A DNA stretch of 64,000 nt from Cystobasidiopsis lactophilus (Eukaryota > Basidiomycota > Agaricostilbomycetes > Agaricostilbales > Chionosphaeraceae): NCBI GenBank assembly GCA_001599975.1, contig BCIO01000001.1, positions 4,895,631-4,959,630 on the forward strand, written 5' to 3'. Position numbers and translations under genes: made by a program. Below are positions 3,995 through 61,302 of this stretch, in pieces. How positions within the stretch are numbered: the first letter of the stretch is position 1; every line of letters begins with the position of its first letter. The notes under the pieces are model-generated. The model did no database searches and was not told the DNA's origin. It saw only the letters and a list, made by a program, of their open reading frames with translations.

Positions 3995-6400
3995 ATGGAC
4001 GTGGGCGACATCTTCAAGCTCCCGCCGCTGCCCAAATCCGCCCTGGGCAACAAGCGGAAAGCGTCTGGCCCAGCAGCGCCCGCGGTCGAGGCGAGCGTGA
4101 AAGCGGTCAAGCTGAGCAGCGAGGACTCGCCGGCGACGAACGGCAATGGCTCGCCGCCAAAGTTCAAGACGCGCGTGTCGACGGAGGAAGAGGACGAAGC
4201 TTTCGACGACGTGGCCAACGCGAGCGCCGAGTCTGACTTTGCGTGAGTTCGCTGCCGCCCTCAAAATTGCGTTTGTTGACAGGCCCCGGTGCGTGCGCCG
4301 CCCGTCCATCAGGCCCGGCAACGACGCCGACTACTTTGCAGAGGAGGACGAGGATGGCCGGTTCTTTGGCGGCGGCTTGACGGGCCAGCAGAAGGAGATC
4401 TTGAGGATCCTCGACACGGAGACGGAGGACGCAGCTGGCACCGGCCTCATGACGCTGCCCGAGTGCCGCAAGAGCCTGCTCAACCTGGAGAAAGCCATCG
4501 ACAAGAACAGGGAGATGCGGGTGCGTTCCATCATTGCCCTGTTCCTAGCCCGAGCCAAGGCTCAAGGCGGATTGGCCTCGTCAGACCAAATTCCCTTCCA
4601 ACCCAGAAAAGTGCGCCGGCTTGCTCCTTGCCCAGATTGAATGCGCATATGCTCACCAGAGCTAGCACAGATTCGTGGACTCGGAGATTGCGCTCGACTC
4701 GGCCCTGGGCTCCTTGCTGCTGCTCACCCAAGACCCAGCGACTTTTTACCCAGAGCTCGTCCGGCTCAACATCACCACCTCTCTCATGGACCTCTTATCT
4801 CGTGTGTCTTGTCTCACTATTACTCTCGAGGCGAACAGCAGCTCATGAGGGCTCCCACATCTCAGACGAAAACATCGACATTACCATCAGCGTCATCAAG
4901 GTGCTCGAGGAGCTGACGGACGAGGACGTTGGCGAGGGCGTAGAAGACGAAGAGGCCTTCTTGAAGGCACTGGACGGCCTCTTGAATGGCTTGGTAGGTC
5001 GCTAGCCTTTGGACATCCTTTCCCGCCCGTGGCCCTGACAGCGACGTGAAACAGATGACCGCCTCTCTGCCCGAACTCCTCACCTCCAACTTTTCGAGAT
5101 TCTCGCCAACCGAGCCGGCAGAGCAGCAAGGCCTCTACCACGCCCTGAGCTTGATTGAGAACCTGCTCTCCTCCTCCCTCGCCGCCAAAATTGCCAGCAC
5201 GCTGCTGGACAAGACCGACTTCCTGCCTTACCTCCTCTCCTCCATCTTGCCACCGACCAAGTCAGCGGACGAAAACCCGGCGGCGGCTGGCCAAGAGCAG
5301 AACCGCTTTTACGCCGCCGAGCTGCTCGCTGTCCTGCTCTCCCTTCCTGGCGAGGTGGCAGCATCTGCGCTCTCAGCGTTCCTCGCCAAAGATGGCATGG
5401 ACGCAGTTCTGAAGTGCTTGAGCGGCTACCGGCGGCGAGACCCCAGGGGCGAGGAGGTCGAGTACATGGAGAATCTGTTCGACACCCTGTGCTCGTGCCT
5501 GGCGTCGGAAGAAGGCAAAAAGGTGTTCCGAGAGGCCGAAGGAACAGAGCTGATGGTCATCTTGATGAAGTAGGCCTTTTCACGACGCCTTGGCACATTG
5601 GCGGGCCCTGACGGCGATTCTTGCTCAAACAGGGAGAAGAAGATGGCCAAAACGCGGGCGATCAAGGTGCTCGACTTTGCGATGGCTTCGGAAGAGGAGG
5701 GCTCGACAACGTGCCTGCAGTTTGTCGAGTCCTTGGGCCTCAAGACTTTGTTTCCTGCCTTCATGGGCAAGGTGCGCCTTTCTTTCAGCTTCTAGACCGA
5801 TTAGTACAGCGTACATTTTCTCAACCTGATACATATAACATGCAGGGCGGCAAGCGGGACGCGCCCACTTCCGAAGACATGGAGCACATCCTCGGCATCC
5901 TGGCCTCTCTCTTGACCTCCCTGGAATCGGACACTCCACCGAGGCTGCGAGTGTTGGCCAAGTTTGTGGAGGAGGGTTACGAAAAGATCGACCGGCTGCT
6001 GGAGATCCGCGAGGCGTCGGAGAACCGGATCGCCAGGTGGGAGGCGGACGCCAAGGCGCGGGCAGACTTCGAGATGGATGCGGACGACGTCTTCTTGGGG
6101 CGGCTCGAGAATGGTCTGGCGACGTTACAACTGTGCGATTACGTGCTGGCGTGGGCTGTGATGGAAGATGATGGCGTGAGTTGGGAATTTTCTCTACTGG
6201 TATGCCCTAGATGACAACGTGTGTTGATACAGGTGCGCGACCATGCCAAGATGCTGCTGAACCGAAATGACAAAAGCTGGGCCGATGTGGTGGGCGTGCT
6301 AGACGAATATGCGGCCAACATTGAAGGTGGCGAAGGGAGCCCGGGCGCCAACAAGCGAGGGATCATAGCGGCCCTGCTGGAGTACATGGAGGGCTTGTAA
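3995..6400 (+). CDS. CTNNBL1: Beta-catenin-like protein 1 (CTNNBL1), spliceosome-associated armadillo protein
   Basis: CTNNBL1 is a nuclear armadillo-repeat protein that associates with the Prp19/CDC5L part of the spliceosome. The model has nine exons: 3995-4242, 4283-4520, 4585-4610, 4671-4801, 4866-4993, 5055-5569, 5633-5771, 5846-6175 and 6233-6400 (about 640 residues; the human protein has about 560). The N-terminal MDVG, the junction KFPSNPEKFVDSE, VIKVLEELTDED, YMENLFDTLCSCL and TRAIKVLDFAM all match family landmarks I remember. The third exon is a 26-nt microexon encoding the KFPSNPEK block and is required for the frame. Exon 2 has two in-frame acceptors, 4283 and 4313. The first 90 residues are low-complexity and acidic. 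The stop lies only 9 bp from the stop of the convergent F-box-like gene. Confidence 0.93.
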
Positions 6401-6409
6401 ATGGCACCC

Positions 6410-7893
6410 TCAAGAGTCCCCCTCTTCCCACTCATTGAGCCAATTGCTGCAGAGCGGCGCAATGTCCACCGAACGCTCGCTGCAGTACTTCTTGAGGAAG
6501 ATCATTTCCGGAGAAGCCAGCTCTTGCTGCTCGGTCAGCTCGGACAGAGTGTACCGCAGCGACTTGACGTTCTTGCTGACGGGGTCGAGCATGAGCTCCA
6601 TCAGCAGCTCTGGCCGAAACGGATTGCTGCACAAGCCGAGGTGGGTAGTGCGGGGTGATACGAGGAGTCGAATTATGTCCAAAGTGTTGGTGGGGTGTGC
6701 ATCTAGAATCGGGCCGACGCACATTGAGGTGATACAGAGGTGGGTGAGCGCGGGCAGCGGCAATTTGGCAATATCCTGCCGTTCGGCCGCTGTCCAGAAA
6801 TCAAGCGTGATGTAGGAAAGAACCAGCTTGCTTAGCGATGTCGAGATCGTAGAGAGAAGGCGGAAGAGGTCGACCGTAGACGCGCAGATGGCCCCAAGCG
6901 AAAGCTCTGTCAGGGGCGGGAGACTCCGCAAGAGCAGGACGTCAGCCGGTATCCCCAAGTGGTCGTTTGCCAAGACGCTTTCGCCAATCACACACGACGA
7001 GACCGACGTGACGCGCTGCAAATAAAGGGCCACATAAGCAATCTGCCAGAACGTGCATGAGCAGACGACGGACCAGGTAAGACATGTTCTTCCCAGCGAG
7101 ATGCAGCTCATGAGTGCCTCTGCTCGACTTCTTCCGACAGGGCGTGCAAAACGTCAGGTTCAGCCGAGCTGGCGCGGGCTGATCGACCAAAAGCTCGAGA
7201 AGCCCTTCGACCGCAATGTCCGCCACCGTCTCCAACGCCTTTGGCTCGGAGTATTCGTACGCCACATCAAGCAAACTGAGCTTAGCGGAGATCTCTGTAA
7301 TAACCGACAAGACTGGTCTCCAATGCTCATATTTGACCTGAACATGGAGGACGCTTAGGCTTCCGGGACGCCTATCTTAGCCTTAGGGTCACCCACCAAA
7401 GGGTTGGAGCCAACACTAGCAAGCTCGGTGTGCTATGCGGAGAGTCAGAAGGCGTCGCGCAGCTTGACTTGAAAATTGGGCTTACGCCGGTGGCGGTCAC
7501 GAAAAGGATGTGCAGGCAAGAAAGATCCTTCAAGGCGGCGAGGCTCTTTGCCAGCAACGCAATGTACTTTTTGTCGGCCGCCTTTGCTGCAGCATTCGGC
7601 GGTGCAAAGGGGATGAAGGCCCGGGCATGCCGCACATGCTTCGCCTGGTACGTCGCCACATGTTCCAGGAAGTGCTCTAGGTGGGAGGCGGAGCAGACGG
7701 TGCCAGAAGTGGATTGGCCGAACTCGACGGCTTGGAAGAGGAGCGGGTTCATGACCCGATTGAACTTTTTGCTCGCCAGCCGGAAAGCCTGACAGTCGTT
7801 CCACCGGGCGCAATCGTCGTTGGAGTAGACGTCGCCGGCGATTTGAACCAAGAGCTCGTCTGGTAAGACGATCGCCATGCCTGCCGCCGACAT
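6410..7893 (-). CDS. F-box/LRR-like protein
   Basis: Three exons (7893-7486, 7337-7074, 7015-6410), all phase 0, encode about 425 residues. The N-terminus MAIVLPDELLVQIAGDVY with following ASKKFNRVMNPLLF looks like an F-box-type helix set, the part that would bind Skp1. The rest carries leucine-rich segments such as LNLTFC, HELHLAGKNMSYL and LTELSLGA, as in substrate-recognition repeats. The second donor is a non-consensus GTCCGT. An in-frame upstream ATG at 8067 would add 58 residues; the shorter start is preferred because F-boxes usually lie near the N-terminus. It is convergent with CTNNBL1. Substrate unknown; the fold assignment is by pattern only. Confidence 0.6.
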
Positions 7894-60199: not shown

Positions 60200-60397
60200 C
60201 TCGCGGCAGACTTCACAAGCAATAGCAGCCAGCGATCCTAGGCTCAGAAGACGGTTTCGTTGACAGCCTGCGCTTGGCAAAGGGAGTTTTGAGGCTTGTT
60301 GACGCTTTGCCTTTGGACGTCCGCCTCTGAGCTTCAGCCCCCAAAATGTGAGCACCGTGCCGCGCCGGCAGTTGCGGTTCTTCGTACTTATAACACC

Positions 60398-61302
60398 ATG
60401 CGTGCACACAGGCCTAAAATCAAGGTACATCCGCAATCCAAAGTGCCGCCGAAGACCCAGGGCTGATTTCTTTGTGGCGCTCGCCCGTCAAACAGACATC
60501 ACGGACCAAGCCTCCGCCAGGTTCGTCCCTTGCTTTGTACACATGCTCTGGATTCAGCTCATGATCCGCGTGGGAACAACAGAGGGCTTCGATGAGATTG
60601 AATCCATCCTGGAGGAGTACAACCGAAAAATGCGCGACGGTGCGTTTGACCACTTCCCCCTAGCTCCTTGGGCCAAGAGCTCATCACGTATGCCTCGCGC
60701 ACAGCCGAGAACGAGGACCACGAGGGCAAGCGCAAGACCGAGTCGCTCTGGCCCATTATGAGGATCGTCCACACTCGAAGCCGGTACATCTACGACCTGT
60801 ACTACAACCGGGAGGGCATCTCCAAGGAGCTGTACGACTGGTTGATCAAAGAGGGCTACGCGGACGGCAAGTGAGTCACCCCTCTGAGCGCCTTTCCGCC
60901 CAAAGAATGTGCTCTAAGAGGTCTCGCAGTCTGATCGCCAAGTGGAAGAAGCAAGGTTACGAGAAGCTGTGCTGCGTGAGGTGCATCCAAAGCAGGGTGC
61001 GTGTCTCGTGCTTGCCTATCAAGGGCTCCCTCGTTGCTCACTGGTCACCCCGATGTTACAGGACATGAACTAGTGAGCCTCTTCTCCCTCGAGTCCCCTT
61101 ACAATAGAACTCAAGCCCCATGTCAAACAGTGCCGGGTCAACGTGCATCTGCCGGGTGCCGAAAGCCAGCCTCAAGGGGACCGTCTCGGTCGAGTGCGTC
61201 CACTGCGGTAGGTGGCGTTCTCCATCGAACCATCGCTTTTTTGCTGAGCTACTCGCCATTTACATACCCACAGGCTGCAGAGGATGTGCAAGTACAGATT
61301 GA
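60398..61302 (+). CDS. BUD31: BUD31 pre-mRNA splicing factor
   Basis: Eight exons (60398-60424, 60495-60519, 60583-60639, 60705-60870, 60930-60996, 61062-61072, 61131-61207, 61274-61302) give 152 residues, the usual BUD31 length. BUD31 is a zinc-binding protein of the activated spliceosome. The spliced protein is textbook BUD31: KIKTSRTKPPPEGFDEIE, NEDHEGKRKTESLWPI, SRYIYDLYYNREGISKELY, EGYADGNLIAKWKKQGYE, LCCVRCIQSRDMNYAG, CICRVPK and VECVHCGCRGCAS. The Cys clusters that bind zinc are all present. The 25-nt exon (TSRTKPPP) and the 11-nt exon (DMNY) are both required. The N-terminus MRAHRPKIK differs from the usual MPKI. Confidence 0.95.

What the first reader, a model, noticed from the sequence alone, without database searches (positions are those of the whole stretch)
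4585..61072. Unusually many coding microexons (7-26 nt), most confirmed by conserved protein blocks
The conserved protein is only restored if tiny exons are included. They are CTNNBL1 4585-4610 (26 nt), membrane gene 18565-18559 (7), zinc-cluster gene 22814-22801 (14), FAM32A 30890-30878 (13) and 30822-30808 (15 coding), Cys-rich pair 32752-32745 and 34210-34203 (8 each), VID27 35649-35657 (9 coding) and 35717-35726 (10), SGNH copy 2 45915-45925 (11), metacaspase 47518-47511 (8) and 47684-47666 (19), ANT1 50589-50575 (15), and BUD31 60495-60519 (25) and 61062-61072 (11). Such density in about 60 kb is striking. Standard gene finders would miss many of these, so related genomes are probably mis-annotated.
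Basis: partly seen in the sequence, partly recalled or inferred. Interest (0 to 1): 0.8.

Follow-up and report, generated by a model that had tools for sequence, protein, structure and literature searches.

The report
Ordinary tiny exons in intron-rich yeast
The tiny coding exons (2 to 26 letters) read in this yeast DNA look real, but they are about what its very dense introns would leave by chance, so they are common elsewhere in the genome and not peculiar to this stretch.

Summary
On protein evidence the microexons hold up. All 13 internal ones on the list have support: 6 from solved-structure relatives, 3 from Pfam, 4 from homologues or paralogues (the Cys-rich pair only from each other, weakly). 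The other two (VID27 9 nt, FAM32A 15 nt) are coding ends of first and last exons; BUD31 "60495-60519" is 60496-60520.

The density is not special. A gene finder trained on 200 kb elsewhere on the contig finds 56 of 429 internal exons ≤26 nt there and 19 of 119 in the window (Fisher P 0.45). Random intron placement in the same genes gives 92.8±7.9; 75 are seen. The shortfall lies at ≤8 nt (11 against about 31). Flanking introns and splice sites look ordinary; lengths show no multiple-of-3 bias. Best reading: constitutive, intron-defined splicing in an intron-rich basidiomycete yeast (4.5 introns per coding kb).

The annotation warning has support in one gene: 43 of 120 database NDUFS2 proteins differ in length in the block over our tiny-exon array, 33 by 3 residues or more, though few are close relatives. 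No RNA data were available.

The parts
4585..4610 (+). CTNNBL1, 26-nt exon (TKFPSNPEK)
   Evidence: gene finder exact; aligns to PDB beta-catenin-like protein 1 KFPDNPEKF
18559..18565 (-). EXPERA/EBP-like membrane gene, 7-nt exon (part of YIISNAL)
   Evidence: gene finder exact, in a fused model and with a hand-set start; homologue P0001 has FLVSNALVIWD; no Pfam family
   Evidence: P0001 YVYGLPA, P0002 YVYGWPA at the same place
22801..22814 (-). Zn2Cys6 gene, 14-nt exon carrying the sixth Cys
   Evidence: manual model completes CX2CX6C...CX2CX6C; N-terminal piece scores Zn_clus 22.6 bits (cut-off 21) against none for the gene finder's model; the gene finder never chose this exon
30878..30890 (-). 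FAM32A, 13-nt exon (DIPK)
   Evidence: gene finder exact; PDB FAM32A EHYDIPKV; without it the block stays but with a read-through insertion
30808..30822 (-). FAM32A, 15 coding nt of the last exon (not a microexon)
32745..32752 (-). Cys-rich gene A, 8-nt exon (LTSSMASNPNC)
   Evidence: forced model, score 2.4 against -3.2 without short exons; same place and length in paralogue B
34203..34210 (-). Cys-rich gene B, 8-nt exon (LTSTMAHNPNC)
   Evidence: forced model, score -0.1 against -8.7; flanking exons 75% and 72% identical to A, flanking introns 53% and 48%, shuffled baseline 46 +- 4%
35649..35657 (+). VID27, first 9 coding nt of the first exon (not a microexon)
35717..35726 (+). VID27, 10-nt exon (FKA)
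   Evidence: gene finder exact; N-terminal piece scores VID27_N 150.0 bits from residue 1 with it, 146.6 from residue 23 without
45228..45229 (+).
   Evidence: only 1-2-nt exon called in 264 kb in genes scoring over 5; canonical sites both sides; GH at this place in SGNH1 and 7 of 7 homologues; 1-2-nt false in 1608 decoys
45915..45925 (+). SGNH copy 2, 11-nt exon (DMTIG)
   Evidence: gene finder exact; SGNH1 has GDMVIAYL inside one 476-nt exon; block present in 6 of 7 homologues, P0127 has a gap
47511..47518 (-). metacaspase, 8-nt exon (EPN)
   Evidence: gene finder exact; PDB metacaspase-1
47666..47684 (-). metacaspase, 19-nt exon (HSATAMD)
   Evidence: gene finder exact; PDB metacaspase-1
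49618..49638 (-).
   Evidence: Mito_carr 161 against 123 bits for the three ANT1 microexons together
50575..50589 (-). ANT1, 15-nt exon (YPLDT; carrier signature, recalled)
   Evidence: gene finder exact; Pfam
50654..50675 (-).
60346..60347 (+). BUD31, coding part AT of the first exon: an intron splits the start codon AT|G
60412..60424 (+).
   Evidence: gene finder; PDB BUD31 MPKVK
60496..60520 (+). BUD31, 25-nt exon (TSRTKPPP); reader gave 60495-60519
   Evidence: gene finder; PDB cwf14 TSRTKRPP
61062..61072 (+). BUD31, 11-nt exon (DMNY)
   Evidence: gene finder exact; PDB BUD31 DTNF

Best explanation
These are ordinary, constitutively spliced coding exons of an intron-rich basidiomycete yeast (probably Pucciniomycotina). 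Introns of about 59 nt sit in the coding sequence about once per 220 nt, nearly at random, so two of them often fall within 26 nt of each other and leave a microexon. Each intron is recognised as a unit of its own (intron definition), so the exon between needs no signals and no minimum size; only exons of about 8 nt or less are clearly rarer than chance, perhaps because the two introns' splice factors get in each other's way and the introns must then leave one after the other. Shown here: the exons as sequence, the protein blocks, the length counts, the ordinary splice sites. Inferred: constitutive inclusion, intron definition, and the steric reason.
For: Protein blocks restored. Same share of internal exons <=26 nt in the control region (56 of 429) and the window (19 of 119); random placement gives 92.8 +- 7.9 for both, 75 seen. 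In the control region, intron length (median 59 nt both), donor score (P 0.86) and acceptor score (P 0.10) do not differ between introns beside microexons (101) and the others (392). Lengths modulo 3 are 23, 24, 28. Implanted exons of 3-40 nt are found at 91-94% whatever their length, so the deficit at <=8 nt is not a matter of detection by length. Spurious microexons appear in 32 of 804 decoy introns. Control genes with and without their microexons: the Pfam score rises in 11 of 14 pairs.
Against: No transcripts were available. Lengths are not purely random: exons of 51-149 nt are in excess (214 against 173.9 +- 10.4) and the total <=26 nt is below chance (P 0.014). Of 31 control genes with microexons, 14 were tested against Pfam, 9 picked because they were short or looked conserved and 5 because the microexon added little to the gene-finder score; of the 14, 2 are uninformative and 1 speaks against its microexon (a RING-like match, below the family's cut-off, appears only in the version without it). 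So some called microexons are false. In the decoy test 667 of 804 introns came back exactly. The gene finder fused ANT1 with metacaspase and mis-set two metacaspase boundaries, which I corrected from a recalled consensus and then checked against PDB.
Confidence: 0.85

Rival explanations
1. Regulated switch-like microexons: some of these exons are included or skipped to turn the protein on or off, as reported for the 20-nt exon inside the Zn2Cys6 domain of Xlr2 in Trichoderma virens. The 14-nt exon that carries the sixth Cys of the window's zinc-cluster gene is the best candidate.
For: Skipping would shift the frame and remove the last zinc ligand. A precedent exists in a fungal Zn2Cys6 gene (PMC11121469, passages seen).
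Against: Splice sites beside microexons are as strong as elsewhere and the introns are no longer (control region); no multiple-of-3 bias; many sit inside conserved domains where skipping would break the protein.
Confidence: 0.07
2. Artefact: the reader (or my gene finder) patches frameshifts, pseudogenes or sequencing errors with invented tiny exons.
For: One control microexon looks false; 8 of 152 artificial frameshifts are patched by a spurious internal microexon, and 32 of 804 decoy introns hold one.
Against: Recovery of 12 of 15 without homology; restored blocks in proteins of known structure.
Confidence: 0.04
3. Microexons are actively favoured or clustered here, for instance by bursts of intron gain in certain genes.
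For: Runs such as 26-10-13-19 nt in an Arf-family GTPase and 8-3-16 nt in NDUFS2; SGNH1 has no intron where SGNH2 has two, 11 nt apart.
Against: Adjacent microexon pairs: 14 seen, 17.4 +- 4.3 by random placement, 12.0 +- 2.5 by shuffling exon order within genes; longest run 4 against 3.7 +- 0.9.
Confidence: 0.04

Closest known systems
Very small exons in Cryptococcus neoformans var. grubii (PMC3990503, section on introns read)
   Same: Intron-dense basidiomycete yeast, introns of median 56 nt, exons as small as 1 bp, hard for automatic annotation
   Different: There 3.35 introns per coding kb and RNA-seq backed; here 4.5 per coding kb, no RNA; here the counts are compared with random placement
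Microexons of 2-10 codons in the Phanerochaete chrysosporium P450 genes (PMC1184071, passages seen)
   Same: Widespread tiny coding exons beside 45-55 bp introns, nearly one third of that gene set
   Different: There read as likely to promote alternative splicing; here they look constitutive and occur in many kinds of gene
One-nucleotide exons: CYP621A of Fusarium (PMC12940212, passages seen) and the Arabidopsis single-nucleotide exon (PMC4674806, search listing only)
   Same: Ultra-small exon inside a conserved motif, argued in Fusarium from an intronless relative, as for our 2-nt exon in SGNH2
   Different: The Fusarium one has transcript reads; ours is 2 nt and sequence-only
Switch-like microexon of Xlr2 in Trichoderma virens (PMC11121469, passages seen)
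   Same: Tiny exon inside a Zn2Cys6 domain
   Different: There 20 nt encoding PCRRCE with two of the cysteines, glucose regulated; here 14 nt carrying the sixth Cys, regulation untested, position differs
Animal neuronal microexons (a paper in the listing; otherwise recalled)
   Same: Exon size below about 30 nt
   Different: Microexons are said to be usually multiples of three (passage of PMC11121469); here no such bias

Membership tests
Constitutive coding microexons of intron-rich fungi | internal exon of about 27 nt or less, bounded by canonical splice sites | tested here: met
   21 in the window; the gene finder allows only GT or GC donors and AG acceptors; sites printed
Constitutive coding microexons of intron-rich fungi | exon needed to restore a conserved protein block | tested here: met
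   11 of 14 control pairs gain in Pfam score, 2 neutral, 1 against
Constitutive coding microexons of intron-rich fungi | short flanking introns, high intron density | tested here: met
   median 59 nt; 4.52 introns per coding kb
Constitutive coding microexons of intron-rich fungi | included in nearly all transcripts | not testable with these tools
   no RNA reads
Regulated (cassette) microexons | length biased to multiples of three, weak splice sites | tested here: not met
   23, 24, 28 by length modulo 3; donor P 0.86, acceptor P 0.10
Regulated (cassette) microexons | condition-dependent inclusion | not testable with these tools
   no RNA reads

The most novel reading that the evidence does not exclude
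In this yeast the spliceosome sets almost no lower limit on exon length: exons are not clearly rarer than random intron placement predicts down to about 9 nt, thin out only about twofold at 3-8 nt, and include working exons of 2 nt (SGNH2) and 3 nt (NDUFS2). That would be a direct measure of the steric floor of intron-defined splicing.
Probability: 0.4. Interest if true: 0.55.

Novelty: new member of a known kind. Interest (0 to 1): 0.38.

Why it matters
It puts a number on what to expect: in such a genome about one internal exon in seven may be ≤26 nt with no special mechanism, so annotation pipelines should have no exon-length floor. The NDUFS2 comparison suggests how public protein sets go wrong near such places. 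The size of the deficit at ≤8 nt offers a measurable limit for intron-defined splicing.

Tried and rejected
Rfam gave no match at gathering thresholds in the window. A forced-gene run with a bonus per gene broke genes into scraps and was discarded; it was replaced by runs with fixed start and stop. Clustering of microexons was tested and not found. Pfam has no family for the membrane gene or for Cys-rich gene A as forced. PDB best stretches for ANT1 begin at residue 74 or later, so they do not test its 22- and 15-nt exons. That the zinc-cluster exon is the same exon as in Xlr2 was dropped because the encoded piece differs. Searches on exon-length distribution (no paper) and on Cystobasidium introns (5 papers listed, none opened) gave nothing used. 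Homologues of the membrane gene that start at MKGGDLHW (P0039, P0040) hint at truncated models but were not followed.
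Full report
What was checked. The window lies in a 22.1-Mb genome of 8 contigs. Relatives among database proteins are Cystobasidium minutum and Cyphobasidiales (SGNH2, 50-52%); for NDUFS2 the best are an unnamed metagenome protein (93%), Mixia and Cryptococcus, with Sporobolomyces at 92% over a shorter part. I take it for a Pucciniomycotina yeast; the placing of names in that group is recalled. 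I wrote a small gene finder and trained it on 200 kb of the same contig (4.0-4.2 Mb). It learnt donor GTRMGT, a CTSAY branch site, CAG acceptors and a median intron of 59 nt, with 74 genes and 500 introns. Its starting codon table had also seen long open frames of the window; a repeat started from the control alone gives the same 12 of 15.

The listed exons. Not called were the zinc-cluster exon and the Cys-rich pair. PDB alignments run through the BUD31, CTNNBL1, FAM32A and metacaspase exons; against human BUD31 there is a one-residue gap in the 25-nt exon and one just after the 11-nt exon. Pfam scores rise with the exons for ANT1 (161 against 123 bits), VID27_N (150.0 against 146.6, alignment from residue 1 instead of 23) and the zinc cluster (22.6 against none). 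The zinc-cluster model was built by hand, differs from the gene finder's in several exons, and its gene-finder score was not computed. The membrane gene belongs to a fungal EXPERA/EBP-like family by hit names; P0001 reads FLVSNALVIWD where ours reads YIISNALVMWD.

The Cys-rich pair is the weakest. Forced models score 2.4 and -0.1. What speaks for them is that both keep an 8-nt exon at the same place, encoding LTSSMASNPNC and LTSTMAHNPNC. The flanking introns are near the shuffled baseline (53% and 48% against 46±4%, baseline from the left intron) and the flanking exons 75% and 72% identical; but the next intron (59%) and the last exon (64%) hardly differ, and the 8-nt exons share only 4 of 8 letters.

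Additions. The smallest is 2 nt: in SGNH copy 2, AT at 45228-45229 lies between introns of 56 and 65 nt with sites GTAAGC/TCGCAG and GTGAGT/CAACAG. It completes the His of GGSVSAGH. Copy 1 has GGSVSLGH in one exon, and 7 of 7 database homologues have GH there. With no exon-length floor this was the only 1-2-nt exon called in 264 kb in genes scoring over 5; decoys give 7 such calls in 1608. In the control region NDUFS2 has a 3-nt exon ATG that encodes the M of IIGTMDLVFGEVDR; a second 3-nt call there is unsupported. BUD31's start codon is split AT|G by an intron.

Number against chance. Internal exons ≤26 nt: control 56 of 429, window 19 of 119, Fisher P 0.45. Placing the same number of introns at random in the same genes gives 72.4±6.9 and 20.1±3.6; for both regions 92.8±7.9 against 75 seen (P 0.014 for so few). 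By size for both regions: 1-2 nt 1 against 8.1; 3-8 nt 10 against 23.0; 9-14 nt 17 against 21.8; 15-26 nt 47 against 39.9; 27-50 nt 57 against 68.5; 51-149 nt 214 against 173.9; 150 nt and more 202 against 212.8. So there is no excess of microexons and a clear shortfall at 8 nt and below; the excess at 51-149 nt shows that placement is not purely random. Detection does not depend on length (implanted exons of 3-40 nt found at 91-94%; these used introns the finder itself had called, so the level is optimistic). Decoy introns of 115-150 nt contain a spurious microexon in 32 of 804 cases and are returned exactly in 667; 8 of 152 artificial frameshifts are patched by a microexon.

How good are the control calls? 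Of 31 control genes with microexons, 14 were compared in Pfam with and without them. Nine were chosen as short or conserved-looking, and all nine gain (for instance Arf 142.1 against 78.2, Pro_isomerase 172.4 against 121.8, Complex1_49kDa 400.6 against 362.8). Five were chosen because the microexon added little to the gene-finder score: two gain (EMP24 176.4 against 156.5, Sugar_tr 205.7 against 201.2), two are uninformative, and one speaks against its microexon. The 'without' models also lose exons of 27-29 nt, so some of the gain may come from those. A 15th gene, an M1-type aminopeptidase, aligns to PDB relatives through its 6-, 18-, 9- and 25-nt exons, including GAMEN (motif name recalled). 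The other 16 were not tested.

Mechanism. In the control region introns beside microexons are as short and their sites as strong as elsewhere. Lengths modulo 3 are even, so most would shift the frame if skipped. This fits constitutive splicing with each intron recognised as a unit. SGNH1 and SGNH2 show one way such an exon arises: copy 1 has the block GDMVIAYL inside a 476-nt exon, copy 2 has two introns 11 nt apart there; whether they were gained in copy 2 or lost in copy 1 is open.

Annotation. The 120 best-scoring NDUFS2 proteins of the 7,916 that passed the threshold were aligned. The 26-residue block over the first 21-nt exon is intact in 118 of 120; the 39-residue C-terminal block, over the exons of 21, 35, 8, 3, 16 and 14 nt, is intact in 77 of 120 by a rule of equal length and 60% identity. 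Of the 43 others 33 differ in length by 3 residues or more and 10 by 1-2, some of which may be real variation. Per exon, the share of irregular proteins is 100% for exon 1 (the N-terminus), 0-10% for exons 2-10, and 31%, 5%, 2%, 18% and 23% for exons 11-15 (35, 8, 3, 16, 14 nt). Of the 12 I place in Pucciniomycotina 1 is irregular. I do not hold those genomes, so that their genes have the same array is inference.

Known before. Exons down to 1 bp are reported in Cryptococcus, microexons in Phanerochaete P450 genes, a one-nucleotide exon in Fusarium and one in Arabidopsis (listing). Phaffia rhodozyma has 7.5 introns per gene (passages) and R. toruloides about 6 (passage); here 6.8. Nine searches listed no paper whose title or abstract start compares fungal microexon numbers with random intron placement; one search listed 20 of 51 papers and 10 of 14, and most papers were seen only in the listing.

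Verdict. Real exons on the sequence evidence, ordinary in kind and number for so intron-rich a genome; new are the list, the 2-nt and 3-nt cases and the measured shortfall at ≤8 nt.

Noticed in passing
window 42605-44392 and 44734-46646 (+): Tandem SGNH-like paralogues (one homologue is named CAP64 product); intron positions differ between the copies, a possible case for dating intron gain or loss.
   Followed up: partly
window 32460-34746 (-): Tandem Cys-rich gene pair; copy A has no Pfam match; their upstream exons remain uncertain.
   Followed up: partly
window 20178-23347 (-): Zn2Cys6 gene whose zinc domain is cut into exons of 27, 29, 42 and 14 nt in the manual model.
   Followed up: partly
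window 60346-60347 (+): BUD31 start codon is split by an intron after AT.
   Followed up: no
L016 3008-5200 (-): NDUFS2 with exons of 21, 35, 8, 3, 16 and 14 nt at its C-terminus; database proteins of other fungi are often irregular there.
   Followed up: partly
window 51835-55899 (+): Gene finder joins an F-box/LRR-like stretch with a catalase-like one (names by eye); probably two genes fused.
   Followed up: no
P0039, P0040 (homologues of window 17689-18672): Both proteins start at MKGGDLHW, without the N-terminal block that our 7-nt exon helps to encode; possibly truncated gene models.
   Followed up: no
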